In this document: one piece after another, positions 28,616-54,423 of the stretch
Layout of the letters: the number at the start of each line of letters is the position of its first letter
How positions within the stretch are numbered: the first letter of the stretch is position 1
NCBI GenBank assembly: GCA_023091665.1
Contig: JALJCQ010000015.1
Span: 744,001-808,000, forward strand
Source: Pythium myriotylum
Lineage: Eukaryota > Oomycota > Peronosporomycetes > Pythiales > Pythiaceae
DNA length: 64,000 bases
Direction: 5' to 3'
Program-made: the position numbers and the translations under genes
The notes under the pieces: generated by a model
Seen by the model: only the letters and a program-made list of their open reading frames with translations
Told to the model about the DNA's origin: nothing
Databases searched by the model: none

Positions 28616-28826
28616 GCTCTGGATGACACCTCCGATAGATGGCTACATTTCTATACAAGAGCACTAAGTCGCGTAAAATTCCTATATAAGAGCATGAAGT
28701 TTACCAACATTCCACGAACTGAAGTGTCAAAACACGGTTGAGCTCCTCATCATCGAGTTGGCCCTCGTGTGTCAAGAACAGCGTCATCTCATCTTCGTCT
28801 CTCTTTTCTCTCGCTCTTCTCTCGCC

Positions 28827-35006: not shown

Positions 35007-37079
35007 TTAGCGGCGCTTGGAGAAGACGAGCGCGACGGCGTACACGGCGCCGACGGCGACGCCGGCCATCGCGAGGTCGCGCAGGCCCAGGCGCGTCACC
35101 ACGAGGCGCTTGCCGCTCGGGTGCTGGTGGTGGCTATGCGCCTTGACGACCGGCTTGACCGTCGTCGTCTGGGTCGTCGTGACGACCACGACGTGCTTGG
35201 CCTCATCGATGTCGCGCTGCACCATCTTGGCGCAGATCGGGTGGTACAGACCCTTGGTCTTGCCGAACAGCTCGGCCGCGTGGGCCTTGCCCGCGTGCTT
35301 GATGAGGTCGCGGAAGAGCGGACGCACGTACTTCATGCGGCCCTGCTCGCCCAGGAACGCAGCGATGTTCTCGTGCTGGCGAGGGTCCTTGGCTCGGAGC
35401 GACAGCGTGTACCAGCGGAAACGCAGCTCGGCGTTGCCCGACGTCGTCAGGCGGTGGCCCACGAACGCGTCGATCGCGTCCAAGTGCGCACGCGAGAAGA
35501 CCGCGCCGCGCTCCGACTGCTGCAGCAGCAGTGTGTCCAGCAGCAGCACCCACAGCGCCGTGGGCCACGCCGCGAAGTCGCTCGGCTTGGCAGAGCCCCA
35601 GGTCGACGGATCGGCCGACGCAGCCATGCGCTCGCCCAGCTTCGTCGCCGCACTCGTGCGCGTCGTGTCGAACGGCGTCATGACGAGCGGCATGCCCGGT
35701 GAGTGCAGCCAGTTGTGCCAGTCGATCTGCTTAAGCTGCTCACGCTTGTTCACGACGGACGTGAAGTAGTTGGTGAAGTACGTCTGGAACTCCTCGGTCG
35801 TGAGCGTCTTGAAGCGGAAGTGCTTGATGTAGGCCTTGGCGAACTTCTCGAAGACATCGCGACCACCAACGACCTCGGTGAGGTAGTTGAGAAAGTTGAA
35901 GCCCTTCTCGTACGGGATGGACGAGAAGACATCATCCGGGTCGATGCCGTCGCTGTCCGGCACGAGGTGGGTGTACGGATGGTCGGCACCGAAGTCCTCG
36001 ACCGATTCCTTGAGGTCGCGGAGGCCCATCGTCGCCTTCAGGTCATACGCAAGTGGGTCGTTGTAGATCTTGGTCATGATCTTGCGCTCCAGCCACATGG
36101 TCCAGCCCTCGTTGAGCCAGAAGTCCTTCCACGTGTGGTTGGTCACGAGGTTACCCGTCCATGAGTGCGAGATCTCATGCGCCACGACGTCCGCGAGCGA
36201 GCAATCACCAGCCAGAAGCGTGGGCGTCACGAACGTCAGGCACGGGTTCTCCATGCCTCCGTACGGGAACGACGGCGGCAGACACACGAGGTCGTATCGC
36301 TTCCACACATACTCCTGGCCCGTGATCTCCTCAGCGTACTTGAGGAACTCCTCGGTCTGCGAGAACTCGTGAGCAGCCTTGTCCACGACCGACGCCTCGG
36401 CCCACACGCGGCTGCGCGGGCCGATCTCGCGCGACTCGATCTTGCCGGCGGCGATGGCGAGCAAGTAGGCCGGGATAGGCACCTCCTGGTGGAACGAGAC
36501 CGTGTGCACGCCCTTGGGCTCGACGGCCTTGTGCTTCGTGTTCTTGGGGGATCCCTCGGAAGCAATCGCACTCAGCAGCGCCGTGCACCATTCCGGCACG
36601 GTGACCGTAGCCGAGTAGGTGAACTTGGACGCCGGCGTGTCCGGGCACGGCACGATCGTGCGCGCATGGATGGCCTGGCACTGCGTGAAGAGGTACGGGT
36701 GGCTCTTGTCGGCCGTGAGCTCCTTAGAGAGCCACTGGAGACCGCTCGAGGCCGCGGTCGTGGTGTACTGGACCTTGACCTTCTTGACCTCGTACTCGAC
36801 GGGGATCTTGAGCGCGCTGCCGAAGACGGGGTCGGCCTTGAGCAGCTCAAACGCGACCTCCTTGCCGTCGGCGAAGGCCTTCTCGACCACGAGGTGGTTG
36901 GTGTCGAGCACGACGAAGTGCTTGTCCTGCTTCTCGCCCTTGTACTTGACCGTGTACTCGGCGGAGCCGTGGAGGTGCTGGCGCTCGAAGTCGACGTCGA
37001 TGACCCAGTGGAGGTGCTCGAAGTTGACCTGCGTGAGGTTGGCGTACGAGTGGTGCTTGAGCGGAGGCGTGCCGCACAT
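35007..37079 (-). CDS. Leukotriene A4 hydrolase-type M1 aminopeptidase, copy 2
   Basis: 690 residues, one exon, start MCGTPPLKHHSYAN at 37079; the frame is open further upstream without improving homology. It shows PYGGMENPC, HEISH at 301-305 and WLNEGW, as in copy 1. The N-terminal 400 residues differ clearly from copy 1, while from about EKGFNFLNYL to IDEAKHVVVVT the proteins are almost identical and the DNA differs at only scattered positions, with the last 200 bp identical. The tails then diverge: this copy has a Thr/His-rich linker and its own hydrophobic end (LAMAGVAVGAVYAVALVF) plus KRR. Gene conversion between the inverted copies is the simplest reading. Confidence 0.93.
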   Translation of the reverse strand: MCGTPPLKHHSYANLTQVNFEHLHWVIDVDFERQHLHGSAEYTVKYKGEKQDKHFVVLDTNHLVVEKAFADGKEVAFELLKADPVFGSALKIPVEYEVKKVKVQYTTTAASSGLQWLSKELTADKSHPYLFTQCQAIHARTIVPCPDTPASKFTYSATVTVPEWCTALLSAIASEGSPKNTKHKAVEPKGVHTVSFHQEVPIPAYLLAIAAGKIESREIGPRSRVWAEASVVDKAAHEFSQTEEFLKYAEEITGQEYVWKRYDLVCLPPSFPYGGMENPCLTFVTPTLLAGDCSLADVVAHEISHSWTGNLVTNHTWKDFWLNEGWTMWLERKIMTKIYNDPLAYDLKATMGLRDLKESVEDFGADHPYTHLVPDSDGIDPDDVFSSIPYEKGFNFLNYLTEVVGGRDVFEKFAKAYIKHFRFKTLTTEEFQTYFTNYFTSVVNKREQLKQIDWHNWLHSPGMPLVMTPFDTTRTSAATKLGERMAASADPSTWGSAKPSDFAAWPTALWVLLLDTLLLQQSERGAVFSRAHLDAIDAFVGHRLTTSGNAELRFRWYTLSLRAKDPRQHENIAAFLGEQGRMKYVRPLFRDLIKHAGKAHAAELFGKTKGLYHPICAKMVQRDIDEAKHVVVVTTTQTTTVKPVVKAHSHHQHPSGKRLVVTRLGLRDLAMAGVAVGAVYAVALVFSKRR

Positions 37080-37380
37080 GGTGAAGGAGGGCGAAGGGGG
37101 GACGGGCAGAGGGGGGGGCGAAGGAAGGGCTCGGCGGTTTGTCGGCCAACACGCAAGTGAGCGTGTGTCAAGGAGGGACCCGGTCGTCCACAGATCAAGT
37201 GAGCTGCTCGCGACAATTAGCCAATCAGATCGCTGGCTTTTCAGCTTGTTTTGAGATTTCGGCGAGGAGATCACCTCATTTCGACATTTTGGGGCTGATT
37301 TTGACCAGCTTCAAGTGATCTGCAAGGAGATTATCGACAGATACAGGAACTGCACGCTACTCGACACTTTCCATCTCTCT

Positions 37381-40300
37381 CTACCAAAACGGACACCAGC
37401 CAATGTAGCACTGGCAGAGGTTCTCGTGGGACGACGCCTGGTCGATCAGCCGCTGCACCTGAGCACTCACGTCCAGCGGGTCGTTCTTGACGTCGTCGAA
37501 GTCGCGGCCCGTGAGCTTGGCCTGCACGCGGCGAATCACAGCCACGGCCTTCTCGTTCAGAGCCTCGGCGGGCGCACCGGCGCCTTCGGGGCCCAGCGCC
37601 TGTACGAGCTCGCGCTCGCGATGGCTGCGATTGGCGTGAACATCGGACTTGTTCTGGGACTGGGCCACTTGGGTTGGGGCTTGGCCTTGCGGCGGAGCCT
37701 GGCCTTGCCCTGGTGCAGGGGCAGGTCCAGCACTAATGGATCCACGGCGTGCCTTGGCTCGCACAACACCACCGCCTGTAGCTGCGACTGGGGGAGCCTC
37801 CTCAGTCTTGGACTCTTCGGTGGCGGCAGGTGGGGCAGCAGGCTCTCGCTGCTGTGCCGTAGCTCGAGCGACCGTCGAGCGCAATTCGGCAGCTGTCTGC
37901 GAGAAATCACGACGCAGGCTGCCTTGACCTTCGGTAGTGACGCTCGCTGCGAGGTTCGAGATCTCAGCGGCGAGATTCGTGGTCGAGTGGTCGACGCGCT
38001 GGACAGGCTCTTGCTCGCCGTCATCATCCTCCAGCGCCGCATTGTTGCGAGTGACGACTGGCGGCGGACGGCGCGTGAATGCGATGGATTTACTCACACT
38101 CATTGGTCGTGAGCCCGCCACTGACGTGGACGGACGCGGCGGAAGCTGAGAGGAACGCACACTACCAGCGACTGAGCCAACGATCGGACGAGCAGTTTCA
38201 CGGCGTGAAGTTGTCGCAGCTCCTGAAGCCGGTGGAAGCTGCTGACGCACGGGTCGAGGACGCTTCGGCATTTTACTCACCATGACCGCTGACGCCGACA
38301 GGCTCTCGGCCACCTGGTCTCCATCTTCGTCGTCACTGCTGCTCTCCGACTCTTCTTCCCGTCGTGCCTCCGCTTTAGGTTCCTCGCGTGGAGCAGGAGC
38401 TGGTGCTGCGGCAGGCACAGGCGCAGGTACCGGTGCCGGCGCCAATGTGGGTGCAGGTGGTGGCACCGCCGCAGGTGGCTGCTGCTGCTGCTGCTGAGGA
38501 GCCACGGGTGGTTGAGTTGGCACTGGCACTGGTGCCGCCATTGCCTGGCGCATTTGCATCGACGCCGGGCCTCCAGCTCCTGACAGCGCACTAACGCGGC
38601 TAGGCGAGCCGCCGTCCTTGGGGTTATTCTTCGGTGCAAGCAAACGCCAGCAGATGAGCGGGTCGTGGACGAAGGCTTCGAGCATGGCCATGAGTGAGTG
38701 ACGGTTCTCGCGCAGCACGCCCATCACCGACTCACAGCTGAAGCGGAAATTGCCTTCAATGCCGCTCACCTCCATCGCGTTCGTGAGCATGCGCGTTAGG
38801 CGGAACGGAATCTTTTCTGGGTACTTCTCGCGATGCATCGCGACTTCAAAACAATCGCCAAAATCGATGTGCAAAATCGTGCCCGTGAATCGATGAAGCA
38901 TTAGATTGGATGGATGGCGATCACCCAGTCCAAGAATGTAGCCGACCATCGACATGACCGCGAGCGAGCGCGTGTAGTTGGTACGGCGGTCGAGCCAGAC
39001 CTCAGAGTTCTGGCTCTTCAGCCATAGCACCTTGTATAGGTCCTGGCCGGCCGTGTTCTCCAGCGCGTACTCGAAGACCTCGACCTTTTCGAGCAGTGTG
39101 AGCGCGTCGTAGTCGGGGGCCATCTGCAGCATCAGTCTGTGCTCAATATTCAGCAGAATCTTGCGGGCTTCTCGGTAGTCGCGGATCAACTGATGGAGAG
39201 TGTCGCAGTTGGGGACCCAACCAAGAATGCCGGCGTTGTGCGAAAGCGGAATGACCGGATACCGGTGGATCTTGAGATCTTTCTTCGAAGTCGTGCGGTC
39301 GTTGATAAGCAGCGCGTTCACGAGGCCAAACAATTGCGCTACGCGTTCGTCCTGGCGAAGGTCTTCGTGGCCCTTGAGCAGAAACATGTACTCGAGACCG
39401 TTCGAGCCGACGAGAGTGATGCGTCGCGGGCGCTGCTTACTCGTGATGACTTGGACCGTGGGCTGGAAGCGGCCGATCTTGACGATACTGTGCCCCGCAC
39501 GGTACGTACCAGGCACGGCCAGCTGAAGGTTCTTTGCCTGCAGTAGATTAGGTGAGACGTACTGCAGTTCGAGCGTGGTGAGCTGTGGCAGCTGCTTGTT
39601 AATCCGGCGGAAGACGTGGTAGTAGAGGTCCCACGCGCGGTTCAGGTCACTTTCATTGTTCTTGCGGTTACTGCTGTGCAGGAAACGCTGCAGCCACTCG
39701 TAGGCCTCGCGCAGATCACGTCCGAACGCCTGTTGGAAGCTCACCTCACGCAGCGTCTCCGGGCCGTTCTCCATCATCTGGTGCAGCGGCTCGAGCACGG
39801 CAACCATGCCTTCGACGTCGTGCTCACCGAAATACAGTCTCGAAGCTTCTTCGAGGCCTTCATGCCACATCTCGTGCCACAAGATTGCGACGCGAATGAG
39901 CTCTTTACTGACGAGCAGTGCTTCGTCGACGAGTTCTGGGTAGTGACGCCGCATCGAGTTCATAATGGCCTCAGCAGCTTGTTGGCGAACAGGCAACGGG
40001 CTCTTGAGTGCGACGGAAAGTGGATAGATGAGAGCATGCGGATGCTGCGCGCCGATGGCGCAAAGCAGTCGCTGCAGCTGGGCCTGGATGCGTTGGTATG
40101 GCGTGTGAATACGCGCGATGAGCTGCGGGATCACGATGAGCCACGTCTCAATGCTCACTGAAGCAAAGCCTTGGACCAGTGCCTGGTGGACATCTGCACG
40201 GTGACCGTACGCAAACCACAGCGTGAGCACGCGCAGAATGTCTTGTTGGACGTTGGCAGCCCAACGACTGCGACCGAGCGCGATCGAGCGGAAGAAGCCT

Positions 40301-43300
40301 TCCATCGCAGACGAAATGTATGGACCCATTGTCGGGCTAGCTGCAGTAGCGGCTGCAGAAGCTGACGACGTGTAGTGCTCGACCACATAAAAGTTCACCA
40401 ATGCCCACGAGTGCCATGCCTTGTAGCTTTTCGGTTCAAGTTCGGTACACATCTTGAGAGACGATAAAATCGCCGGCACCGAGCCGACGCGATCAAGCTG
40501 CTGGTCGTGGATCGCGAGCTGCCAGTCAGCAAGCTTTAAGTGGCACTTGACGAGCAGTTCCTCCTCTCCGCTCCCGCGTGGCATGGAGATCGCAGCTGGC
40601 GATGCCGGTGGCGTCACGCTGATGCCGGGACCTGCACCCGCGTTCCCAGGATTCATGCGCTGCCGCAATGCCGCAGACGAGGCCGACACCTTCTGCACGA
40701 GTGACTGGAGTTCTGTTAGCGCTTTCTTCTTGTCACCAACCGCCCATAAATGCTTCAGATACGCAAACGCCACGCGGTGGTGTTCACGCTCTCCGTAGCC
40801 AAACGTTCCGCCTCCGTTGACAGAAACAGCAAGGTCGCCAGCACTCGATGAAGGGGTTAGCGACAAGGACTTCGTGAACACGTTGAGACTCATCGATAAG
40901 TTACCTGACTGGCGGCAGAGACTCGCAAACTGGAGCCACGTGTCCATATCCTCATACGGCGCAACAATCAGTGAGCGCACCGCGAGGATCTGCTGCCACA
41001 CGTCAACCACGCGCTTGCAGCCAGTTTGCAGTCGTGCGTGCCACATCCGAATCAGGTGGCGCTTGTAGCGAGCAGCTTCTTCCGTCTTGGAAACCTGGAG
41101 GCGAAGCTTCTTGTACGTGACGATTTCCTCCAGCTCACTCAGCTGCTGAAGCGTGACCATCGAATCATACGCCCGACTGTAAGATTCACCAACCAGCGCT
41201 CCGAGCTGTCCGTCAAGCAACTTGCGGGTTTCGTCGATGCACTCGCTAGCGGTATCAAACTGGTTGTGGTGAACAGCCAGTACAGCTCGGAACAGCGCGC
41301 TCTCAGTCTCAGTCTCCGCTGGACCTGTCGCAAGCCCCGTCGGTCTCAATGATCCAGACGCTAGTGAGTTGCTTCCTCCCGAATTCAGGCTCGAACCACA
41401 CGCCACATCCACGTACGTTGCCATCTGATCCCACTGCCCAAGACACCACGAGGCCTTGGCACCGAGCATCGAGATCGTGTTCACTGCCGCCTCATCGCTC
41501 AGACCTCCATCATCCATTGCTCCAAGTAGTCCTGACTGCGACGTAAAGCTTCCATGTCGTGACAGCGAGCCGCTAGTGCTATGGCGCAACATTCGACCAC
41601 TTCCGACACTCGTGAGGTTCGACGCACTAACAGATCGCCGCGATCCAGGCTGTTGCGCCGATTGTTGTGCCTTCTTCTCTTGCAGATACGCGTAAACACG
41701 AGAGGCTAGCGAGGACAGCTCCTCCCACTCGCCAAGCGCTTCGAGACAACGCATTTTGCCGACATACACCTCCAAGTCCACGTGACCGCTCTGCTCGTAT
41801 TGCTCAATCTTCGCATTGTACAGCTGCAAAGCCGCTTGCCAGTCCTGGAGCTTCTCGTACCACGTCTCTTGTACATGGATTGGGTGCGCTGCCGACTGCT
41901 TCTGTGCGTACTTCAAAATGCCAACAGCAGCCTCCGGCTGTCCAAGTTGGTTGTTGATAGAAATCAACGACTCGATACACGTTGACGGTGAGGTGTGGAA
42001 CTCAAGTTCCTTGTAATGCAGGGCTTTGGCGTAGGCATGGCACTTTTGAGCTAACTCGCCAAGTTCCCGAATGTCGATGGGAAGAGCTTCAACGTCGTGC
42101 TCCATGAACTCGGCAAGGTTCAGCAGGATCTGGAGGATTTCTGCGGGGATCGTATCCGACTGGAAGGCGGTCTCCAATGCCCGCACTAGGTAGTCCTGGT
42201 ACTGCTCGTACAGCTCGTTCCAGCACGACACAAACGCAGGATTGAATAGCTCGCGAGCAAGAGGGTTGTACGCCTGTGCGAGTGCGCAGCACGAACGGAG
42301 CGCGGCCGATGGAGACTCGCGGAGCAACTCGATTGAGAACCGTCTCATCCACTCGAGCCAGTCCTCACGCGTGCTTCGCTGCGAAGCCTCCCAGGCACGT
42401 CGAAGATTTTGCTGATTCACGTGGAGGCGGACTGCATTGGACGGAACATTAGATGCCGGTGCAGCCAGACTTTCACTCATCATTCGTATCATCGTCTTCA
42501 AGCTCGCATTCTGTGTGAAGACTTCATCGTCAAGGAGCCATGAAATCTCGATGCGTTGGCCTGTCCGAAGGCGGTCCATCGCGTTTCGCAGCTTTAGCTG
42601 CATATCCATCGACTCGGAGGATGGTAACGTCGAAAGCATTTGGTTGACAATTGGAGCAAACTGGAGGAACTCGGACTGTAGTTGATAGAGTAGAGACGCC
42701 AAAGCGTACAATAACACATCTGAGAACTGCTTGGCTTCCGCCTTCGTCGCAGCGATCGGCGCGGATGTTGAAGAACTGGAGCCAGCAACTAATACACCAG
42801 CTGCACCATCACTACGGCCGCTAGTCGCGCCACCTCCCGTGTTGCCTCCTGTTCCAAAGAACAATGAGTGTTTGGCGGAGATCTGGCGAGCAACGCGCGC
42901 CAGTGGCTGGATAATGCGTGCACCAGCGTAATGTTCAAACTTGGCGACAACGCAGATACGCGCAATCGCGTACATCACAGCGATCTTCACATCCAGCGAC
43001 GTGTCGAGACTCTCCATAAGCCGGAGCAACGCAGGAAGCAACAGGTACACGTAGTCCTCGACTGCATCCCGAAATACAATCAAGGCCTGCACCACTTGAG
43101 TCTGCAACGCAGCCATCGCTTGCTTACTGGCCGCCTTAGCGGTCTTGTCACGAGCGGAGACTGGACCCGCAGCGACTGCGCTCGTGACGACCATACCACT
43201 TTCCACAACACCTTCTCCCCCCAAAACCATCAACTGGTGAGCACCCACACCGACCGCCGCAACGCCGGAACCAGGTGCAGCCACTACAGGGCCTCCGTCA

Positions 43301-46300
43301 GCATTTCCCGCGACTCCAGCAGTAGCGGGACCGGTGGCGGATGACGACGTTGCCAACACTTCAAAGAACACCTCGGGGTTGGCGTGGGGTTGCAAGACGT
43401 CGACAATCTTGGGCAATACCTGGGGGAAGTAAACCGATCGGAATTCGGTCGGTGCTGCTTGGCTCATTTTCTCCAGCAATCGGATGATCTGCTGAAGATG
43501 TTGACCCCAGTACCGAAGGGTGAGAACCATAATCGCCGGGAAAAATGGCTTCATGTGGGAATGCACGATTCCCACGAGGGTCGTGAGCTGCAAGAACAAG
43601 GACTCACGAAGACGAGGCTCACCTCGGGCGAGCACACGCAAGAACGGCGGCACAATGTACGGCAGGAATGGAACACACTGGATGTGAAGCGACTTGAAGA
43701 TAAACATGATCGCCTGAATCACACCATGGTGATGGGTCGAAAGCGATGGCTCGTTCAGGATCTTCAGCAACGCAGAGATCGCGACAGTAGGGAAATATGA
43801 CTCAGATGCCGGGGAGATACCCGTGGCGTCAAGACTCCCGAGCGATTCAATGCCTTCAGGGAGTAGCTTCTCAAAATCAAACACTACTGCGTCACTCTTC
43901 AGCCCGCCGCTACGCCCGCCACCAACAGATGAGGCCTCACCGCTGGAGGTGCCCTCAGCAGAGGTTGTCGCTCGCTTCGTACCAATCGGTGCCGCTGTGA
44001 ACAGTTGCAACTCGATCTGCTGCTTCTCGTTCAAGACATCGACACCCATTTGGTTGTTTGAAGAAGCAGCCAAACTATCAAAGTCCAGACCGGGCACGAG
44101 TCGGCCGAGTGCTTGCAACTCGGAGGCCAGTGCGGCACTAGCCGGATCTCCCTCCGCCTCAGGAAGCGCCTTAGTTTCTTCCTTCTTTCCAGTACCATGC
44201 TCATCGTTGTCCTGAAGCATTGAAACACGCGACAGGCAGAGCTTGTACTTGTACGGATCCAAAGCTCCGAGAATACCAATCGTCTTCATTGCTTCTCGAC
44301 GAAGTGGCCACGGCGTTGCGGCAGTGTGCTGCAGCATACTGAGCAGGATCTCAAGCAACTTCGGGAATGCCAAATACGGACGCACGACACAAGCCGTGCT
44401 ACCAGCAAGCTGCCCCATTGTCTGCAGAGCAAGTTGGCGTTTCTCCATCGATGAATGGTCTTGCAGCGTATGCAAAATGAGTGGCAATAGGTATCGCTCG
44501 TACCTTGCAATTTGGTGCTGCGCAACAAGAGCGAGTTCACCGATCGTGACTAGCACTGCCGATGCCAGCGACGCGTTGTTGTTGTGCCCGTAATTGACGT
44601 AGCTGGGGCCAGCCGACACAACGACTAGCTTCGGTAACAGCACCCGCAAAACGCGGACGATATATGGATCGATCAAATGGTGGGCGCCTCGAATGAGCAA
44701 GCCCAGCAGTCGTGTGGCATCCTCCTTCATGCGCACATCAGCTGGATTTGCATGTTCCAACTCGGTCAAAAGCTGTAAGAGCATTCGGCGTAGAGATGGC
44801 ATCACAAATGCCGGGTTTCGAGGGGCAAGGCGCTCGATGAGCTGCATCGCCTGCTCGCGAATTGACGAAACCTCGTCGTTAAGCAAAATGAAGAGTGCTG
44901 TTAAGTGGTCTTCTTGGCTGAGCCATGAGTCGAAACGCGGATCCAATGATTCGACGACGCTCTTGCGCACATGAAAATCTACGTCCGAGCAACCTACGAG
45001 CAACAACTGCGTCAACAATTCGTCAATCACGCGACCACTGGGTCCTCGCTTCGTAACATGGCGCCAACTCGGCGCCTGGGGCTGGTACAAAGATGTCGAT
45101 ATGCTGGTGGACGACGACGAAGATGAAGGAAGAAGTAGTTGGCTGCATGTGACGACAGCTTGTCGGCGAACTCGGGGATCGCTGTGCTTTAGATATAGCG
45201 AAACACAATCGCGAACAAACGGAAGCAAGCAGAAATTGCCACTAAAATCGAAGCAACTGAGCGTGCGAAGTGACAGCAGGATGATCTCGCGCTCATCGGC
45301 ATTCTCGCCCTTAAGCACAACGAATTGCGAGCCGTGAGAAGCAGACCCAGACGCAGTAAGGTGACGCTCGTCATCGTATGCGGACGACGATGCCGATGCC
45401 GATGGAGAAGCTACACCTACTGAAAGCTTCATCGACGACAGCAACGCTTGCATGACGCTGGTGGTTCTCGCTGGCTGTACTGGCGGAGATGCGGTAACCG
45501 AAGAAGGACCATTACTACTCGTCTTCTCAATACCAAAGTACGAGGAGTGCTCGCTATCACCATTCAGGCTTCCGTTTCCCAGCTCACCCGGGACCGAGGA
45601 GAAGGGAACACCACGCAGAGTCTTGGAGATCTCGTTGAGTAGTGTTTCTTGCACGTTGGGAAGCACACTTGGAACAGCAGCCACGATCTGTGATAGTGCT
45701 TCCAGCAGCTCGTCACTGAGCCCTCCTTGCATCATGATCTCCAACAACTCGCTGAGATGGGGCTCAAACTTCTCATGGAGAGCTTGGCTGAGATGAGCCA
45801 CACAAGTAAGCGTCTCAACACAGTAGAGTTTGTTTAGCTTGGCGTTTGTCAGGCCACGGCTGCTGCTGGTTGTGGATAGTTGGTTCTTTGCAAGCGATTC
45901 TTTTACCAGCTTCACAATGGCTGGAACGTGGGGTAGAATGTGGTCGCCGATGGCTGAAGACAGCTTCCCTAGTGACAAAAAGGCGATTCCACGCTCCGAG
46001 GGCGATGTGTAGTTGACAATGCGCTTCATCAAGTGGTTCAAAGCCACGTTCAAGTAGTGGCGAATGAACGCGTCGGGGCAGAAGGCAGCGAGTTGAGGAA
46101 GGAGCACGCAAACTGCGCGACCCACGAGCTTATCCTTTGCATCTTTGTAGAGCAGGACAGTATCACAGACTTCCCTGAAACGGGGCAGCATGAACCCGCC
46201 TGTGTGCTGTAGCAGCTCGCCAATCACCAGCAACGAACCGTGGACACAGTCCCAGGAAGCAGATGTCGGCGGTGATGGCGTCGTCGATGTGACAGGCGGC

Positions 46301-47151
46301 GACTGAGATACGATTCCACTACTCGTACTACGATTGCTCGTCGTCGGCAAGTTCAGTCCTTCAAAGACTTGGTCGTACACTTTGCAGTACCACTGCACGC
46401 GGTGGCGAGTCTGACGCTTGGCAATCAGCTCGAGGCATGCGCGCAACGCGTCGGTCGCGGCCTCTCGGATCTCCACGCGCGGATCGCGGATCGCACCCCA
46501 AATCGACTGGAAAAACGTCGTCAGATTGACGTGGAACAGCGTCGGTGCGCTCTGCGCGAGCTCTCGCAGCACAAAGCATGCCGCGAGCCGCCGCTGGCTG
46601 AAGAGCGCGTCCTGGCGCCCGCCTCGCGAGCCTGACGCTGCATCTGCGCCGGCGCCGCCGGCAGTGACGCTGCCTCCTTGCAGCCACTCGAACGCGCGCT
46701 TGACCTCGAAGTCCACGAACGCCGCGACGAGCGTGCCGCTGACGCCGCCGCTCGCATTGGTCGCATTGCCGCTCGCGAGGTGGCCGAGCGCGGCGCTGGC
46801 GGCGAGCAGCGCCGTGCGCGTGGTCTGGGGCTGCGCGAGGAAGTTGCGCAGGTAGTTGGCGAAGCGGATGATCTGGTCTTCTTGCGCGAGGTCGATGAGC
46901 AGGTCGATGGCGGCGAGCGCGCCCAGCTGGTCGGCCTCGTGGGAGCTCTGCAGCAGCGTGAAGAGCTGCGGCGCGAGCTGCTGCAGCGCCTTGGCGTACT
47001 GCTCGGCGCTGAGCTGGCGCGCGAGCGAGGCCACGAACGAGAAGAGCTCTCGCGCGTGCTGCGCGCGGCGCGCCGCGTCCTTGGTGGAGAGCCGCTTCAC
47101 GAGCGAGGCCACGACCGTCTCGACGTGCTCGCGGTCCTTGTTGAAGGCCAT
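37381..47151 (-). CDS. TOR: TOR (target of rapamycin) serine/threonine kinase
   Basis: A single uninterrupted frame of 3,256 residues; the ATG at 47151 (MAFNKDREHVETVV) is the first in frame. It is the catalytic subunit of TORC1/TORC2, the nutrient-sensing growth regulator. N-terminal HEAT repeats run to about 1,500, the FAT domain follows, and the FRB is at about 2,420-2,500 (WHEMWHEGLEEASRLYFGE), including the Ser and Trp that contact FKBP-rapamycin in other TORs. The PIKK domain has LKGHEDLRQDERV, GLGDRHPSNLML (about 2,740) and HIDFGDCFE (about 2,763). The C-terminus is a perfect FATC (SHENLCQCYIGWCPFW). An unusual Pro/Ala/Gln-rich, acidic and Ser-rich insertion of about 345 residues separates kinase and FATC. 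The 5' 1.27 kb is duplicated at 51463-52735. Its upstream neighbour is a membrane protein gene ending 200 bp before the start. Confidence 0.98.
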   Translation of the reverse strand: MAFNKDREHVETVVASLVKRLSTKDAARRAQHARELFSFVASLARQLSAEQYAKALQQLAPQLFTLLQSSHEADQLGALAAIDLLIDLAQEDQIIRFANYLRNFLAQPQTTRTALLAASAALGHLASGNATNASGGVSGTLVAAFVDFEVKRAFEWLQGGSVTAGGAGADAASGSRGGRQDALFSQRRLAACFVLRELAQSAPTLFHVNLTTFFQSIWGAIRDPRVEIREAATDALRACLELIAKRQTRHRVQWYCKVYDQVFEGLNLPTTSNRSTSSGIVSQSPPVTSTTPSPPTSASWDCVHGSLLVIGELLQHTGGFMLPRFREVCDTVLLYKDAKDKLVGRAVCVLLPQLAAFCPDAFIRHYLNVALNHLMKRIVNYTSPSERGIAFLSLGKLSSAIGDHILPHVPAIVKLVKESLAKNQLSTTSSSRGLTNAKLNKLYCVETLTCVAHLSQALHEKFEPHLSELLEIMMQGGLSDELLEALSQIVAAVPSVLPNVQETLLNEISKTLRGVPFSSVPGELGNGSLNGDSEHSSYFGIEKTSSNGPSSVTASPPVQPARTTSVMQALLSSMKLSVGVASPSASASSSAYDDERHLTASGSASHGSQFVVLKGENADEREIILLSLRTLSCFDFSGNFCLLPFVRDCVSLYLKHSDPRVRRQAVVTCSQLLLPSSSSSSTSISTSLYQPQAPSWRHVTKRGPSGRVIDELLTQLLLVGCSDVDFHVRKSVVESLDPRFDSWLSQEDHLTALFILLNDEVSSIREQAMQLIERLAPRNPAFVMPSLRRMLLQLLTELEHANPADVRMKEDATRLLGLLIRGAHHLIDPYIVRVLRVLLPKLVVVSAGPSYVNYGHNNNASLASAVLVTIGELALVAQHQIARYERYLLPLILHTLQDHSSMEKRQLALQTMGQLAGSTACVVRPYLAFPKLLEILLSMLQHTAATPWPLRREAMKTIGILGALDPYKYKLCLSRVSMLQDNDEHGTGKKEETKALPEAEGDPASAALASELQALGRLVPGLDFDSLAASSNNQMGVDVLNEKQQIELQLFTAAPIGTKRATTSAEGTSSGEASSVGGGRSGGLKSDAVVFDFEKLLPEGIESLGSLDATGISPASESYFPTVAISALLKILNEPSLSTHHHGVIQAIMFIFKSLHIQCVPFLPYIVPPFLRVLARGEPRLRESLFLQLTTLVGIVHSHMKPFFPAIMVLTLRYWGQHLQQIIRLLEKMSQAAPTEFRSVYFPQVLPKIVDVLQPHANPEVFFEVLATSSSATGPATAGVAGNADGGPVVAAPGSGVAAVGVGAHQLMVLGGEGVVESGMVVTSAVAAGPVSARDKTAKAASKQAMAALQTQVVQALIVFRDAVEDYVYLLLPALLRLMESLDTSLDVKIAVMYAIARICVVAKFEHYAGARIIQPLARVARQISAKHSLFFGTGGNTGGGATSGRSDGAAGVLVAGSSSSTSAPIAATKAEAKQFSDVLLYALASLLYQLQSEFLQFAPIVNQMLSTLPSSESMDMQLKLRNAMDRLRTGQRIEISWLLDDEVFTQNASLKTMIRMMSESLAAPASNVPSNAVRLHVNQQNLRRAWEASQRSTREDWLEWMRRFSIELLRESPSAALRSCCALAQAYNPLARELFNPAFVSCWNELYEQYQDYLVRALETAFQSDTIPAEILQILLNLAEFMEHDVEALPIDIRELGELAQKCHAYAKALHYKELEFHTSPSTCIESLISINNQLGQPEAAVGILKYAQKQSAAHPIHVQETWYEKLQDWQAALQLYNAKIEQYEQSGHVDLEVYVGKMRCLEALGEWEELSSLASRVYAYLQEKKAQQSAQQPGSRRSVSASNLTSVGSGRMLRHSTSGSLSRHGSFTSQSGLLGAMDDGGLSDEAAVNTISMLGAKASWCLGQWDQMATYVDVACGSSLNSGGSNSLASGSLRPTGLATGPAETETESALFRAVLAVHHNQFDTASECIDETRKLLDGQLGALVGESYSRAYDSMVTLQQLSELEEIVTYKKLRLQVSKTEEAARYKRHLIRMWHARLQTGCKRVVDVWQQILAVRSLIVAPYEDMDTWLQFASLCRQSGNLSMSLNVFTKSLSLTPSSSAGDLAVSVNGGGTFGYGEREHHRVAFAYLKHLWAVGDKKKALTELQSLVQKVSASSAALRQRMNPGNAGAGPGISVTPPASPAAISMPRGSGEEELLVKCHLKLADWQLAIHDQQLDRVGSVPAILSSLKMCTELEPKSYKAWHSWALVNFYVVEHYTSSASAAATAASPTMGPYISSAMEGFFRSIALGRSRWAANVQQDILRVLTLWFAYGHRADVHQALVQGFASVSIETWLIVIPQLIARIHTPYQRIQAQLQRLLCAIGAQHPHALIYPLSVALKSPLPVRQQAAEAIMNSMRRHYPELVDEALLVSKELIRVAILWHEMWHEGLEEASRLYFGEHDVEGMVAVLEPLHQMMENGPETLREVSFQQAFGRDLREAYEWLQRFLHSSNRKNNESDLNRAWDLYYHVFRRINKQLPQLTTLELQYVSPNLLQAKNLQLAVPGTYRAGHSIVKIGRFQPTVQVITSKQRPRRITLVGSNGLEYMFLLKGHEDLRQDERVAQLFGLVNALLINDRTTSKKDLKIHRYPVIPLSHNAGILGWVPNCDTLHQLIRDYREARKILLNIEHRLMLQMAPDYDALTLLEKVEVFEYALENTAGQDLYKVLWLKSQNSEVWLDRRTNYTRSLAVMSMVGYILGLGDRHPSNLMLHRFTGTILHIDFGDCFEVAMHREKYPEKIPFRLTRMLTNAMEVSGIEGNFRFSCESVMGVLRENRHSLMAMLEAFVHDPLICWRLLAPKNNPKDGGSPSRVSALSGAGGPASMQMRQAMAAPVPVPTQPPVAPQQQQQQPPAAVPPPAPTLAPAPVPAPVPAAAPAPAPREEPKAEARREEESESSSDDEDGDQVAESLSASAVMVSKMPKRPRPVRQQLPPASGAATTSRRETARPIVGSVAGSVRSSQLPPRPSTSVAGSRPMSVSKSIAFTRRPPPVVTRNNAALEDDDGEQEPVQRVDHSTTNLAAEISNLAASVTTEGQGSLRRDFSQTAAELRSTVARATAQQREPAAPPAATEESKTEEAPPVAATGGGVVRAKARRGSISAGPAPAPGQGQAPPQGQAPTQVAQSQNKSDVHANRSHRERELVQALGPEGAGAPAEALNEKAVAVIRRVQAKLTGRDFDDVKNDPLDVSAQVQRLIDQASSHENLCQCYIGWCPFW

Positions 47152-49183
47152 GGCGTCGCCATGCACGGGGTCCCAGCGTCGAGCGGATCTGTTTGGACGA
47201 GGAGCTCCGTGCGATCGGTTTCGAGAGGGAAAGAACTGGGAGCAAGAACATGTTCAAAACAAGAGTTTAAAACACCCTGTGGATACCTTTGTAAACGCAT
47301 ACATGCATCCATAACGATTTGGTTAGGTGAGCTGTGTGGTCATTGGTGACTCACGGGGAATTCTTCTTCAGCCACGCAAACTTGAACGTGTAGTCGGCGC
47401 CTGTGGGCAGATCATCCAAAATGCGTAAGATATCGCAGCCCGTCAATGCCTCCAACGCTTGTGTCTCTCTGACTCACCAAGTTGGATGATCGAGTTTTGC
47501 ATGATGTCGATGACCCACTCCAGCAGTTTCGACTGGAGACTCCGCTGTCGTGTCTCCAACACAAACGCCAACTGATGAACGAACGGCAGACGGAGCTTCC
47601 ACCATAACACGCCGCTCAGCAACACAAAAGACGCAAACTCAAGAGATGCGTAGATCATGACGTTGACCATGGTTGGCACGAGCTGGTTCTGGGTCATGCC
47701 GGCTAGGAAGGGGTAGTAGCGTCGGTTGGGCAGGTGGTACATGACGACGAGGTAGAAATCTAGGTCGAGCAGAGCAACATCAGTACTGGTATGGAATGTG
47801 CCACTGGGAAGGGTTAGTCAGTGAAGCTGAACGTACTGTAGATCATGGGCATGATGACTTCAGTGTACTCTATGAGAGCAGTGAACTCGGTGATGTACAT
47901 AATTTTTTGCGTGGAATGAACGAGCGAGCGTTGTTCGTCATCGGTGAGTGCTGCAAGCTCTGGAGGCAGCGCCGTGGTTAGTACGGGTGTGACATGGGGT
48001 GTCCTTGGCATAAGGTGTTTTTCTGGAGGTACAGGTTTGTTTTTTGTCTGTGCGGCGATACGCTTGGGAAGCCAGTTGCTAAACTGTGGAAGCATGGGTC
48101 TCTGCTTGAGTAGCTGCCCTGTCGCGGTCTTGGCTTCTTCGAGAACCAATTGCGAATGTTCGAGCGCTTGATTCGAGATGGCCATGATGGTATTCTGTCT
48201 TCGGCGCTCAGTTTCGACTGGGTTTCTGTTCTTCACAGCGATATGGCGTCTCACCCGCCAAATCTTTACCACGATCGGTTGGAGGCGAGCCATGATTGCG
48301 TTAATGTCCATGATCGTGAGGAGGGCTTGGATAAAATCAACTGCTACGAGCGCGACGATTGTAGAAGGGGATGTAGCGCGCTGCATACATAGGGAGACGA
48401 AGAGCGAGTGGTAAACTTCGATGTTGAAGACCACGGCTTCTGGTGTAGCATCAGGATCACCGATGAGGCCACGACTGATCCAGTTGCGGATACCGAGCTT
48501 GAGCACGGGCAACACAAGCACAAAGGCTGTTTGCTGCCACGCGCTGCAACTTAAATAGCCGTGATTGAAGAGTGGGTAAGCAACGGTCATGAGCACTTGG
48601 CACACAGCCACGACATGGTATCGCACGAAGTCGAAGAAGAGTTGGCGGTTCCGACGAATCTGAGGAGCCATGGCCACAAGAGTGAGAGGCACAAAGACCA
48701 CACTCCACGGGGCTGTCCCGATAATCATCATAAAGGGGAGCGGATACCCGATCATGTCGCTTAGTCGATAGCAACTCCATGCCGTCACACCACTGGACAC
48801 CGTTGCGATGATAACTCGTGAGAGCCAAGAAAGGGACAACCCGGGGACGTGTTGGACGTACTGCTCTGTCACACATAACGAGATGACAGCCTTGGATATG
48901 AAAGCACGTGTCCAGACAATCGGGCTGTGGTGTGCGCCTCTCTCCGGAGGCTCGAGCGGCATGAGGTCCACGAGCACCATGAAGAGTACGCTGGGCATGG
49001 GCGTGAGACAGCATACGAACAGTGCTCGTCGCCAGCTTGTGCGCTGGAAGTAGCTCTCGAAGGCGAGGAGTCGGGCGGGTGAGTATTGCCCGTGTAGCTC
49101 GACTTGCGTGGCCTCCCACAGTCGTACGACCCGCCGGAGGAAGCCACGCTTGGTCGCCATGGTCTGTCGACCGTAGTGTTGCG
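45879..49183 (-). repeat. Inverted duplication, arm 1 (3.3 kb)
   Basis: Positions x here pair with 98614 minus x in arm 2 over the outer 2.1 kb, where I read no difference. The arm covers the first 425 or so codons of TOR, the TOR 5' flank and the whole membrane gene. The middle of the membrane gene is diverged; its first 325 bp differ at about three sites. Confidence 0.95.
47351..49160 (-). CDS. Multi-pass membrane protein, family copy 1
   Basis: Three exons, 49160-47837, 47759-47478 and 47400-47351, with GT..AG introns of 77 bp each, give 551 residues. It has many hydrophobic segments (ALFVCCLTPMPSVLFMVLVDL, VIIATVSSGVTAW, IIGTAPWSVVFVPLTLVAM, TAFVLVLPVLKLGI, IYASLEFASFVLLSGVLWW), so about 10 membrane passes are likely. 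Conserved family marks are WEATQVELHGQYS, LMPLEPPE, IEVYHSLFVS and HQLAFVLE. I do not recognise a named family; no enzyme or transporter motif is evident. A hydrophilic loop of about 120 residues in the middle is the least conserved part. Copies 2 and 3 lie to the right. Confidence 0.8.
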
Positions 49184-49439
49184 TTCTATGTCTGATGCAA
49201 ACTCCCTTACTAAAGAAAAAGAGTTCTTGGTCCTTCTGGCTGCGGTATACTCAAGAATAGATGATTCGTCCAGATATGTAAACTGCTCGTGGCGAGTTTG
49301 GCTACGTGCATTCGATCATGTGCCGTAGATTGTTGCGGTAGCGTGGAGAGCTGTGATATGTCCACTGATTTCAACTTTCCTCATCGTCGCCGTTTATTTT
49401 GGGCACATGAACACACACGCACACACCCATGAACACACA
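49184..49439. other. Spacer of the inverted duplication / divergent promoter
   Basis: A 256-bp non-repeated stretch between the two arms, serving as the 5' region for both head-to-head membrane genes. It contains an ACACAC-rich run at 49408-49440. Confidence 0.7.
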
Positions 49440-52400
49440 CCCAGCACTACAGTCGACAGACCATGGCGACCAAGCGTGGCTTCCTCCGGCGGGTCGTACG
49501 ACTGTGGGAGGCCACGCAAGTCGAGCTACACGGGCAATACTCACCCGCCCGACTCCTCGCCTTCGAGAGCTACTTCCAGCGCACAAGCTGGCGACGAGCA
49601 CTGTTCGTATGCTGTCTCACGCCCATGCCCAGCGTACTCTTCATGGTGCTCGTGGACCTCATGCCGCTCGAGCCTCCGGAGAGAGGCGCACACCACAGCC
49701 CGATTGTTTGGACACGCGCTTTCATATCCAAGGCTGTCATCTCGTTATGTGTGACAGAGCAGTACGTCCAACACGTCCCTGGGTTATGGTTATCGTGGCC
49801 ATCGCGAATCATAATCGCGATAGCCACGGGCGGCGTTACAGTATGGAGCTGCTATCGGCTAAGCGAGGTGATCGGATACCCACTGCCGTTTACTATGATC
49901 ATTGGCACAGCCCCATGGGGAGTCACACTCGTCCTCCTCACGCTTATCGCGCTCGCCCCACAAATCCGACGAAACCACCAGCTATTCTACGCGTTCGCGC
50001 GCTACCACATCGTGCCTGTGTGTCAGATACTCATGACCATCGCGTACCCGGTTTTCAATTACGGCTACACGAGTTGCTCTTCCTGGGAGCAAACGGCGTT
50101 TGTGCTCGGGCTACCGGCGCTCAAGATCGGTATCCGCAACTGGATCAGTCGTGGTCTCGTCGGAGACAGCGAGGACAAACCCGAGGCCGTGGTCTTCAAC
50201 ATTGAAGTATACCACTCGCTCTTCGTCTCCCTCTGCATGCAGCGTGCAGCATCGCGGTCCACGATCGTCGCGCTCATCGTGGCCGATTTTGTCCAGGCTA
50301 TGCTCACGATGTTGGATATCAAGGCCATTATGGCTCGTCTCGAGCCCCTCGTCATGAAAGTTCGGCGAGCACGGCTCCGTTTATCGACAGAGATTACCAG
50401 CTCCATCTCGGTGTCGCCCTCAAAGGACAAAAGTATAATGACGATCTCCAAGCAAGCCTTGGAGCATTCGCTGTTTGTTCTAGAAGAGGCACAGGATGCG
50501 TCGCGGCGCATTCTCCACTCAGCCCAAGGGCTCTCAACGATTCACCCATCGCAGTGTGCAGCATCGGTCGCCGGGAAGGGCTCTAACTCTCCAACGATTA
50601 ATCTCGTACGACCTTGGAAGCAGGTCACACTTGATCCGATCGCACTACCTCCAGAGCTTGCAGCTCTCACCGATGACGAACAACGCTCGCTCGTCCATTC
50701 CACACAAAAAATTATGTACATCACCGAGTTCACTGCTCTCATAGAGTACACTGAAGTCATCATGCCCATGATCTACAGTACGTTCAGCTTCACTGACTAA
50801 CCCTTCCCAGTGGCACATTCCATACCAGTACTGATGTTGCTCTGCTCGACCTAGATTTCTACCTCGTCGTCATGTACCACCTGCCCAACCGACGCTACTA
50901 CCCCTTCCTAGCCGGCATGACCCAGAACCAGCTCGTGCCAACCATGGTCAACGTCATGATCTACGCATCTCTTGAGTTTGCGTCTTTTGTGTTGCTGAGC
51001 GGCGTGTTATGGTGGAAGCTCCGTCTGCCGTTCGTTCATCAGTTGGCGTTTGTGTTGGAGACACGACAGCGGAGTCTCCAGTCGAAACTGCTGGAGTGGG
51101 TCATCGACATCATGCAAAACTCGATCATCCAACTTGGTGAGTCAGAGAGACACAAGCGTTGGAGGCATTGACGGGCTGCGATATCTTACGCATTTTGGAT
51201 GATCTGCCCACAGGCGCCGACTACACGTTCAAGTTTGCGTGGCTGAAGAAGAATTCCCCGTGAGTCACCAATGACCACACAGCTCACCTAACCAAATCGT
51301 TATGGATGCATGTATGCGTTTACAAAGGTATCCACAGGGTGTTTTAAACTCTTGTTTTGAACATGTTCTTGCTCCCAGTTCTTTCCCTCTCGAAACCGAT
51401 CGCACGGAGCTCCTCGTCCAAACAGATCCGCTCGACGCTGGGACCCCGTGCATGGCGACGCCATGGCCTTCAACAAGGACCGCGAGCACGTCGAGACGGT
51501 CGTGGCCTCGCTCGTGAAGCGGCTCTCCACCAAGGACGCGGCGCGCCGCGCGCAGCACGCGCGAGAGCTCTTCTCGTTCGTGGCCTCGCTCGCGCGCCAG
51601 CTCAGCGCCGAGCAGTACGCCAAGGCGCTGCAGCAGCTCGCGCCGCAGCTCTTCACGCTGCTGCAGAGCTCCCACGAGGCCGACCAGCTGGGCGCGCTCG
51701 CCGCCATCGACCTGCTCATCGACCTCGCGCAAGAAGACCAGATCATCCGCTTCGCCAACTACCTGCGCAACTTCCTCGCGCAGCCCCAGACCACGCGCAC
51801 GGCGCTGCTCGCCGCCAGCGCCGCGCTCGGCCACCTCGCGAGCGGCAATGCGACCAATGCGAGCGGCGGCGTCAGCGGCACGCTCGTCGCGGCGTTCGTG
51901 GACTTCGAGGTCAAGCGCGCGTTCGAGTGGCTGCAAGGAGGCAGCGTCACTGCCGGCGGCGCCGGCGCAGATGCAGCGTCAGGCTCGCGAGGCGGGCGCC
52001 AGGACGCGCTCTTCAGCCAGCGGCGGCTCGCGGCATGCTTTGTGCTGCGAGAGCTCGCGCAGAGCGCACCGACGCTGTTCCACGTCAATCTGACGACGTT
52101 TTTCCAGTCGATTTGGGGTGCGATCCGCGATCCGCGCGTGGAGATCCGAGAGGCCGCGACCGACGCGTTGCGCGCATGCCTCGAGCTGATTGCCAAGCGT
52201 CAGACTCGCCACCGCGTGCAGTGGTACTGCAAAGTGTACGACCAAGTCTTTGAAGGACTGAACTTGCCGACGACGAGCAATCGTAGTACGAGTAGTGGAA
52301 TCGTATCTCAGTCGCCGCCTGTCACATCGACGACGCCATCACCGCCGACATCTGCTTCCTGGGACTGTGTCCACGGTTCGTTGCTGGTGATTGGCGAGCT

Positions 52401-52735
52401 GCTACAGCACACAGGCGGGTTCATGCTGCCCCGTTTCAGGGAAGTCTGTGATACTGTCCTGCTCTACAAAGATGCAAAGGATAAGCTCGTGGGTCGCGCA
52501 GTTTGCGTGCTCCTTCCTCAACTCGCTGCCTTCTGCCCCGACGCGTTCATTCGCCACTACTTGAACGTGGCTTTGAACCACTTGATGAAGCGCATTGTCA
52601 ACTACACATCGCCCTCGGAGCGTGGAATCGCCTTTTTGTCACTAGGGAAGCTGTCTTCAGCCATCGGCGACCACATTCTACCCCACGTTCCAGCCATTGT
52701 GAAGCTGGTAAAAGAATCGCTTGCAAAGAACCAAC
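49440..52735 (+). repeat. Inverted duplication, arm 2 (3.3 kb)
   Basis: Counterpart of 45879-49183. It ends at 52735, where TOR sequence (..GAACCAAC) stops and unrelated sequence begins. Confidence 0.95.
49463..51263 (+). CDS. Multi-pass membrane protein, family copy 2
   Basis: Exons 49463-50777, 50855-51136 and 51214-51263 give 548 residues with the same splice sites as copy 1. Residues 1-108 and the C-terminal 150 or so match copy 1 almost exactly, while the centre (about 109-395) has many substitutions and a different hydrophilic loop (HSAQGLSTIHPSQC). The frame is intact, so both copies may be functional. It is followed by the truncated TOR fragment in the same relative position as the complete TOR follows copy 1. 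Confidence 0.8.
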
Positions 52736-52773
52736 AAAAAGTAGATTTCGCTCGTACTCGTTTTTTACCATGA
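51463..52773 (+). pseudogene. Truncated duplicate of the TOR 5' end
   Basis: The first 423-424 codons equal the TOR gene exactly, up to the repeat end at 52735. The frame then reads 12 unrelated residues (KVDFARTRFLP) to a stop at 52773. Only N-terminal HEAT repeats are encoded, with no kinase. The promoter and 5' flank are also copied, so transcription is possible. It is a fragment by origin, whether or not a short HEAT protein is made. Confidence 0.9.
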
Positions 52774-52849
52774 ACGACCAAGATAAATCAGCGCCTAGAC
52801 TCCAACACTCCTCAGTACCGAATCACTCATGTTTCTCTGATCGACGTAC

Positions 52850-54423
52850 CATAGTGCGCTAATCCGTTGATAATCACGAGCGGTACCCATAGCAGTAATT
52901 TGGCCCGGATATTCGCCGCACGTTCTTCTAGCACAAAAGCTAGCTGATGCAACACTGAGATCCGCGCAATCTTCCAGATAATCCCGGCCATTATTAACAG
53001 TGAAAGGAGCTCCAACAAGACGTAGTACTGAACGTTGTTGGTGATGTGATGGAGATCATCAAGGGAGCATATCTTCTCAAAAAAAAATGAAATTCTTGCG
53101 GTTGGGGAGATGGAAGAGGATGGCCAAAAGTGCGTCTGTCGTTCCAACGGTTTGTTACAACCAGACATCTCAACAAATGCGAGATTAGGAAAGCTTACTG
53201 TAAATGATGGGAACGATGACCTCTGTGTACTCGATCAAGACGATGAACTCTGTTATATACAGAAGCTGCAGAGTGAAGTCAACAAACTTCCTCTTGCCAT
53301 CCACATTTTGGTCACGTGTGGGAGTTGTAGGGGACAATGGCATTGATTGGACCACCGATGAAGATAAAAGTGCTGGACGGAGTGAGATAGTCTTTGTTTG
53401 CCCACTCGGGTGAACTTGTATGACGTTGATCATCCGCTGGGGAGTCGCTGGAACGGTTTGTGGCACTGACCCTAGTCTTGGCTGCTGATTCACTGTAGCG
53501 GAGGCCAAGCTGACGAGGGACTCGTTCATCTGATCTCTTGAAATCATACATCGTAGTTCACTCAAGATATCATGCACATCTCGGAACGACAGCCATGCTT
53601 GAAACGCATCCAACGCCATCAGTATAGCCACCGTACGCATTGATGTCGAACTACCCATACACACGGACACGAACAATGCATGGAATACCTCTACGTTGAA
53701 GATTACAGCCTCCGGCATCGATCCATCACAGTCTGGAAGCGTGCGCGTTATCCAATTCTTGGAGGCGAGTTTGATCAGTGGCAGCAATAACACGAATGCT
53801 GTCTGTTGTGTTCCAGAGAGGCGAGTGTAAGCGGCAGTGTAGATTGGGTAGATGAAGGTGAAGTTCATTTGGGATAGTGCAAACAGCAAATAGCGCACGA
53901 ACAGATTAGAGAGACCCGGTGTCGTGCGGAAAAGGTGAAGCTTCATTGTACCGAACACGACTTGGAGCGAAGCAAACCAGGCGATCCCACCAATGGTGAG
54001 AGTGTAAGGGAACGGGTAGCCGACCATAGTAGCCAACGCTAGTGGAGGAAGCATAGCCACTGGGCAGGTGAATAAAGGAGCGATAATGCAGTCTCGCAGG
54101 CCGACGCGAAATCCAGGTACGTGATGTCCTATTTGCTGGAGCGAGCATAATGTGACAACGACGAATTCGAATAGAAAGAGCAACCACACGAGACTGCTTC
54201 TGGTTGGGCCGTCCTCAATTGGCTCTAGCGGAATCAGTCCGACGAGAGTGACGAATCCGATGGAGGGAAGCGGCACCAAAGCACAGACAAATATCACCCG
54301 AACCCATGAAGCTGCCTTTTGATATCGCTCAAACCTGAAGAGTTGATCTTCGCTATATCGTCCGTGCAGCTCCACCTGGGTGGCGTTCCACGCGCGCTGC
54401 ACCAAGCCACGAATGCGGAGCAT
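52850..54423 (-). pseudogene. Multi-pass membrane protein, family copy 3, broken
   Basis: Exon 1 (54423-53199) encodes the family pattern with WNATQVELHGRYS, LIPLEP, FNVEVFHALFVS and YITEFIVLIEYTEVI; the ATG at 54423 is the first in frame. Intron 1 (53198-53136, donor GTAAGC) leads to exon 2 with HLPNRK, then a run of nine A (T on the coding strand, 53079-53087) is followed by a TGA; homology (HQLAFVLEE) continues in another frame to a donor GTACGT after 52850. No third exon is present: at 52735 the sequence switches to the duplicated TOR fragment. So it has a homopolymer frameshift and a lost 3' end. It is clearly more distant than copies 1 and 2 are from each other. Confidence 0.75.

What the first reader, a model, noticed from the sequence alone, without database searches (positions are those of the whole stretch)
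45879..52735. 3.3-kb inverted duplication copying the 5' end of TOR and its neighbour
The arms are identical by reading over the outer 2.1 kb (TOR start, 5' flank, last exons of the membrane gene) around a 256-bp spacer. A large, near-perfect palindrome beside an essential growth regulator is a potential hotspot for rearrangement, hairpin formation or antisense RNA against TOR. The exactness means the duplication or a conversion event is recent.
Basis: partly seen in the sequence, partly recalled or inferred. Interest (0 to 1): 0.8.

Follow-up and report, generated by a model that had tools for sequence, protein, structure and literature searches.

The report
Half-copied TOR beside gene-converted pair
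In an oomycete (water mould) genome, an old back-to-back pair of membrane-protein genes seems to have been recently overwritten at its ends, and the same copying seems to have carried along an extra start of the growth-control gene TOR, leaving a shortened TOR that overlaps a third gene.

Summary
The inverted repeat is real: 45879-47909 and 50705-52735 match over 2,031 of 2,031 bases. But it is not one recent 3.3-kb duplication. It holds a head-to-head pair of oomycete membrane-protein genes, A and B, whose middle is old (420/573 identical; dS about 1.5, dN/dS about 0.1) and lies between two almost identical tracts: 326/328 at the gene starts, 2,031/2,031 at the gene ends and beyond. Best reading: an old inverted pair, later homogenised by gene conversion. 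One long tract began in the shared 3' part of A and B, ran past A through the 199 bp upstream of TOR and 1.27 kb of TOR coding sequence, and was joined without visible homology into a third family member, C. Result: TOR' (TOR residues 1-424, 12 new residues, stop) behind TOR's own near upstream region, and a gene C whose presumed last exon now reads 45 codons of TOR antisense. No expression data exist here, gene C may be dead, and misassembly of the outer right arm cannot be excluded without reads. A known kind of event at an unusual place.

The parts
37384..47151 (-). TOR kinase gene, 3,256 aa, one open frame
   Evidence: Pfam FAT, FRB, PI3_PI4_kinase, FATC, mTOR_dom; residues 1-1500 57-61% identical to Pythium oligandrum, [Pythium] brassicae and Globisporangium TOR
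47351..49160 (-). gene A, membrane protein, 551 aa, two 77-bp introns (47836-47760, 47477-47401)
   Evidence: gene model compared with Pythium insidiosum homologue, 41%; 102 family matches in the genome, 94 of 197 candidates scored
49463..51263 (+). gene B, 548 aa, same exon structure; start and end like A, middle divergent
49172..49451 (.). centre between the two genes; its halves align poorly (55 of 108 aligned columns identical)
45879..47909 (+). left outer arm: 3' end of A, 199-bp intergenic, first 1,273 bp of TOR; presumed donor
   Evidence: 2,031/2,031 identity
50705..52735 (-). right outer arm: end of B, intergenic, TOR'; presumed recipient
48844..49171 (-). inner near-identical tract in A (first 317 coding bp or so), partner 49452-49779 in B
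   Evidence: 326/328; boundaries
51463..52773 (+). TOR': TOR residues 1-424 plus 12 new residues and stop (436 aa), HEAT region only
52735..52736 (.). junction: identity stops at the base; no TOR remnant found to the right
52598..54423 (-). gene C, third family member (start read by eye from the open frame); presumed last exon 52794-52598 has 19 codons before the junction and 45 codons of TOR antisense after it; frame change at a T9 run from about 53087
   Evidence: family tails
28698..30845 (+). open frame of gene D, M1 aminopeptidase/leukotriene-A4-hydrolase type; inverted partner of E
35010..37310 (-). open frame of gene E, partner of D; patches of 95-100% identity in a pair otherwise mostly 61-92% per 100 bp

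Best explanation
An old inverted (head-to-head) pair of membrane-protein genes has been patchily homogenised by gene conversion. In one recent event the damaged 3' part of gene B used gene A, lying inverted close by, as repair template. Copying began in the shared end of exon 1, ran through A's last exons, the intergenic region and the first 1,273 bp of TOR, and, having left all homology, was finished by end joining into the end of the convergent neighbour C. This replaced B's own end, created a 5'-complete, 3'-truncated TOR copy (TOR'), and removed C's natural end. Shown by sequence: the mosaic, the sharp junction, the reading frames. Inferred: the order of events, the direction A to B, the repair route, C's exon use, any transcription of TOR' or of C.
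For: Old core between near-identical flanks: dS 1.49 and dN 0.148 over codons 99-290, but 2 synonymous and 0 other changes in codons 1-98, and 2 and 0 in the last 43 codons of the exon-1 frame. The identical tract starts inside homologous coding sequence (58/63 at its inner edge) and runs 2,031 bp with no difference, across both introns and the intergenic region too. At the outer edge homology stops at the base; the next TOR-like matches in the window have E 1.2 or worse, and the two flanks do not resemble each other. Gene C's presumed last exon begins like the family's (GAD) but has no stop in the 19 codons before the junction and runs 64 in all; 18 tails of the family read from loci of this genome by a loose motif have 12-32 residues, 12 of 18 having 19 or fewer. 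A query of 1,122 of the 2,031 arm bases found two copies in the genome. Copying of kilobases followed by joining without homology is a described repair outcome (PMC5104497, abstract and introduction read). A mean conversion tract of 2,068 bp is reported for human Y palindrome P6 (PMC3723533, abstract).
Against: No relative's genome could be aligned, so the state before the event is not seen and the order of events is inferred. No microhomology can be tested at the junction because the pre-event right flank is lost. The inner tract needs a second conversion event or a more complex one. Six of the 18 family tails are longer than 19 residues (21-32), so C's stop could have lain further on; and C already departs from the family's F-x-W-L end motif some ten codons before the junction and changes frame upstream, so C may have been decaying before the event, or its last exon may be misread by me.
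Confidence: 0.66

Rival explanations
1. The original old duplication already included the TOR start; repeated conversion has since kept the outer 2 kb identical, as in sex-chromosome palindromes, while the core of A and B diverged.
For: Inverted arms elsewhere are kept over 99.9% alike by conversion (human Y, PMC3723533 abstract). Short TOR-like N-terminal proteins do occur in the databases: 10 hits of 292-670 aa at 31-57% identity; I looked at 3 of the 10 sequences and cannot tell real short genes from fragments.
Against: Conversion would have to reach the last base of homology and yet spare 0.9 kb in the middle of the same arm. The 10 short hits are no closer to TOR' than full TORs of Pythium relatives are to TOR, so none points to a TOR' kept in this lineage.
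Confidence: 0.16
2. Misassembly: A, B and C are real but the outer right arm is a chimeric copy of the TOR end of gene A, wrongly joined to B.
For: Perfect identity over 2,031 bp is also what a chimeric join would give; no reads are available to me; a junction that spoils both neighbouring genes could be an assembly scar; gene C also has a frame change at a T run.
Against: A and B differ strongly in their core, so the pair itself is not an artefact. Arms of 2 kb set 2.7 kb apart are easily crossed by long reads, and 58.7 Mb in 55 contigs suggests long reads were used (inference).
Confidence: 0.12
3. A whole recent 3.3-kb inverted duplication whose core was then replaced by conversion from a third, distant family member.
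For: The family is large (102 matches, a lower bound).
Against: No donor seen: outside A and B the DNA matches to either core are stretches of 153 and 161 bp at 70-71% and of 69 and 63 bp at 78-81%; the best other protein match over the middle is 46%. These searches score only the best candidates.
Confidence: 0.06

Closest known systems
Long-tract gene conversion with non-canonical (end-joining) termination / short break-induced replication
   Same: Kilobases copied from a homologous donor, starting in homology and ending where there is none (PMC5104497, abstract and introduction read).
   Different: There studied with a reporter in mammalian cells, between sister chromatids; here inferred from a standing genome, between inverted paralogues.
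Gene-converting palindromes, for example human Y palindrome P6 (PMC3723533, abstract)
   Same: Inverted arms with identical tracts of about 2 kb.
   Different: Here the arms are a mosaic: a 0.9-kb core per arm is strongly diverged.
Partial gene duplicate with recruitment (PMC3449122, passages read)
   Same: TOR' is part of a parent gene plus a few codons taken from the new site; SRGAP2C is listed there as a partial duplicate.
   Different: Apparently a passenger of conversion of the neighbouring gene; function unknown.
Origin-dependent inverted-repeat amplification, ODIRA (PMC10766186, abstract)
   Same: Makes inverted copies.
   Different: Starts from an inverted triplication; a 1,122-base piece of the arm was found twice, not three times.

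Membership tests
Long-tract gene conversion, non-canonical termination | one boundary in homologous sequence | tested here: met
   tract starts inside exon 1 of A/B, 58/63 at the edge, then 2,031/2,031
Long-tract gene conversion, non-canonical termination | other boundary without homology to the second end | tested here: met
   identity stops at 45879/52735; flanks unlike; no TOR beyond residue 424 to the right
Long-tract gene conversion, non-canonical termination | microhomology or added bases at the joint | not testable with these tools
   pre-event right flank is not known
Gene-converting palindrome (Y type) | arms over 99% identical along their length | tested here: not met
   core 420/573 and 140/289
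Gene-converting palindrome (Y type) | inverted arms with near-identical tracts | tested here: met
   326/328 and 2,031/2,031 flank the core
Partial gene duplicate with recruitment | derived copy = part of the parent plus unique codons from the new site | tested here: met
   424 residues identical to TOR, 12 new, stop
Partial gene duplicate with recruitment | expressed product | not testable with these tools
   no RNA data
ODIRA | inverted triplication | tested here: not met
   two copies of a 1,122-base piece of the outer arm; secondary loss of a third copy not excluded
Natural antisense pair acting through RNAi | overlapping convergent reading frames | tested here: inconclusive
   TOR' stop 52771-52773, presumed C stop 52600-52598 on the other strand; but C has a frame change upstream and its exons are not confirmed by RNA
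Natural antisense pair acting through RNAi | silencing machinery present | tested here: met
   Piwi domain at 4 places, RNase III domain at 6 places
Natural antisense pair acting through RNAi | small RNAs from the overlap | not testable with these tools
   no small-RNA data

The most novel reading that the evidence does not exclude
The accident created a working TOR regulator: either TOR', a separate piece of the TOR HEAT region behind TOR's own upstream region, competes for TOR partners, or transcripts of gene C running into TOR' yield siRNAs that match the full TOR mRNA perfectly. Either would be a new, self-targeting control of TOR born in one repair event.
Probability: 0.07. Interest if true: 0.8.

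Novelty: new member of a known kind. Interest (0 to 1): 0.42.

Why it matters
The scar is unusually legible: the start, path and end of what looks like one repair event can be read, and it touched three genes at once (new end for B, a truncated TOR, a new end for C). It shows how ordinary homogenisation of a gene family can duplicate part of a central gene next door, and it makes a specific, cheap test possible: small RNAs or a short TOR transcript from 51.4-52.8 kb.

Tried and rejected
Recent whole-arm duplication: rejected because the core has dS about 1.5. Core replaced from a third paralogue: no donor found (only the best candidates are scored). A TOR remnant beyond the junction: none, other matches in the window have E 1.2 or worse. 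A conserved truncated TOR elsewhere: 10 hits (7,998 candidates scored, a capped list), 3 of 10 sequences looked at; not settled. Naming the membrane family: no Pfam match for exon 1 of A and B or for C; of 4 homologues one weak match below cut-off (DUF202, E 0.12) and three without match. A model of the Pythium oligandrum homologue (mean pLDDT 76.1, pTM 0.75; alignment of 15 of the 17 proteins, P0008 and P0017 left out, plus exon 1 of A and B) gave 301 PDB matches at E up to 10, 50 shown, none at 0.001 or better. Papers: searches; no title or abstract start in those listings names this locus, and 'oomycete' with 'long tract gene conversion' gave 0 papers. A genome-wide count of such repeats was not done. 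In 30 kb fetched to the right (L046-L048) the inverted pairs over 80 bp were 65-70% alike, except one of 137 bp at 79%.

My first tail count covered 11 readable tails, 8 of them of 19 residues or fewer, and dropped rows without a readable tail; one search repeated it with a looser motif on loci of this genome only and is the count used (18 tails, A and B counted once, C not included because it lacks the W of the motif).

Full report
WHERE. The window is contig C15:744001-808000 of a 58.7-Mb, 55-contig genome. Protein matches put it among the oomycetes, near Pythium: TOR residues 1-1500 are 61% identical to Pythium oligandrum and 57-58% to two Globisporangium, and gene A's best named hits are from Pythium insidiosum, the first at 40%. 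The species is not known.

THE OBSERVATION. Arms 45879-47972 and 50642-52735 are inverted copies. All 5 mismatches fall in the inner 63 bp; the outer 2,031 bp are identical. Going inward, the arms then match 140/289 and 420/573, then again 326/328, and align poorly in the centre. In the whole window, exact inverted matches of 100 bp or more occur only in these two tracts and at 30510-30700, in another pair.

THE GENES. TOR runs from 47151 to 37384 on the minus strand. 199 bp upstream of its start ends gene A (551 aa); head to head with A stands gene B (548 aa); both have two introns of 77 bp. They belong to a large family of helical, probably membrane, proteins (helices in the model; one relative is named Transmembrane protein by a source): 102 matches in this genome, some of them further exons of one gene, 94 of 197 candidates scored. 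A and B are each other's closest relatives: 74% over the whole exon, against 46% or less for the other matches except short C-terminal pieces of 41-48 residues, which reach 58%. Gene C, the next to the right, is a third member.

AGE. Codons 99-290 of A and B differ at dS 1.49 and dN 0.148: an old pair, apparently under purifying selection. Codons 1-98 differ by 2 synonymous changes and the last 43 codons of the exon-1 frame by 2. Selection on protein cannot explain this, because silent sites, introns and the intergenic stretch of the outer tract are identical too. The longest identical runs in exon 1 are 245 and 93 bp; 10,000 shuffles gave at most 51. So the duplication is old and the identical tracts are recent conversions.

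THE TOR COPY. The right arm carries TOR residues 1-424, then 12 foreign codons and a stop at 52771-52773. It keeps the whole 199 bp upstream, so it could be transcribed; this is inference. TOR residues 15-331 and 321-517 align in two pieces with the N-terminal part of an mTOR chain (7pe7_B), so TOR' is a HEAT fragment without kinase, FRB or FATC domains. Nothing of TOR beyond residue 424 was found to the right.

THE JUNCTION AND GENE C. The family ends with a short stretch that begins GAD or similar; 18 such tails from loci of this genome have 12-32 residues after the G, 12 of 18 having 19 or fewer. In gene C the presumed last exon starts at 52794, has 19 codons up to the junction, no stop, and continues for 45 codons in the antisense of TOR' to a stop at 52600-52598. 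If that exon is right, the junction lies inside C's last exon: C's natural end, and B's natural end, have been replaced. TOR' in turn takes its last 12 codons from the antisense of C. The two frames overlap by 176 bp. Cautions: C's tail lacks the W-L of the family motif already before the junction, and C changes frame at a run of nine T from about 53087, either a sequencing error or a dead gene. I described it and did not mend it.

MECHANISM. The simplest course is a break in the 3' part of B, invasion of the inverted neighbour A in the shared end of exon 1, copying for 2 kb past the gene into TOR, and joining without homology to the other broken end within C. Gene conversions of several kilobases that end without homology and are finished by end joining are described (PMC5104497, abstract and introduction), and conversion tracts averaging 2,068 bp occur in a human palindrome (PMC3723533, abstract). 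Direction A to B is inferred from the full TOR lying next to A. The inner tract is a second conversion, of unknown direction.

SAME PROCESS NEXT DOOR. On the other side of TOR, D (28698-30845) and E (37310-35010), both M1 aminopeptidases of the leukotriene-A4-hydrolase type, form another inverted pair, 84.6% overall. Synonymous difference per 25-codon window is 0-0.14 over 30279-30728 and 0.05 at 29604, against 0.17-0.96 in the other windows. Patchy conversion between inverted neighbours is therefore not confined to A and B.

CONSEQUENCES. Sense: TOR' may give a short TOR HEAT protein; the genome has one Raptor_N match and a second FRB-bearing TOR-like gene on C12, with pieces 32-39% identical to TOR'. 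Antisense: any C transcript that includes the presumed last exon runs into TOR antisense, and that RNA would match the full TOR mRNA perfectly. Piwi domains (4 places) and RNase III domains (6 places) are present, and in Phytophthora infestans the generation of 21-nt small RNAs is reported as Dicer-dependent (PMC3522703, passages read). None of this shows that it happens here.

VERDICT. Observation confirmed, interpretation partly supported. A known kind of event (gene conversion that overran its homology) with an unusually readable and possibly consequential result. Open: whether the outer right arm is assembled correctly, whether gene C is alive, and whether TOR' or C is expressed.

Noticed in passing
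window 28698-30845 and 35010-37310: Second inverted gene pair (M1 aminopeptidase/leukotriene A4 hydrolase type) just downstream of TOR, with near-identical patches in a diverged pair.
   Followed up: partly
window 19815-26662: Ty3-type LTR retroelement (open frame 21523-25758) with direct repeats of 411-473 bp at 99.4-100%, three repeat copies, two of them close together at the right end.
   Followed up: partly
G000 C12:714754-721257: A second TOR-like gene with FRB domain in a 2,707-aa open frame; N-terminal pieces 32-39% identical to TOR'.
   Followed up: partly
G000 C15:797-854 kb: Cluster of further members of the A/B/C membrane family to the right of TOR, in both orientations.
   Followed up: partly
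window about 53079-53087: Frame change at a run of nine T in exon 2 of gene C: homopolymer error or pseudogene.
   Followed up: no
L046 1122-4456: Three copies of a unit of about 950 bp, 65-70% alike, in mixed orientation.
   Followed up: no
L048 7781-8505 and 9276-10000: Direct repeat of 725 bp at 92% identity, cut by the end of the fetched stretch.
   Followed up: no
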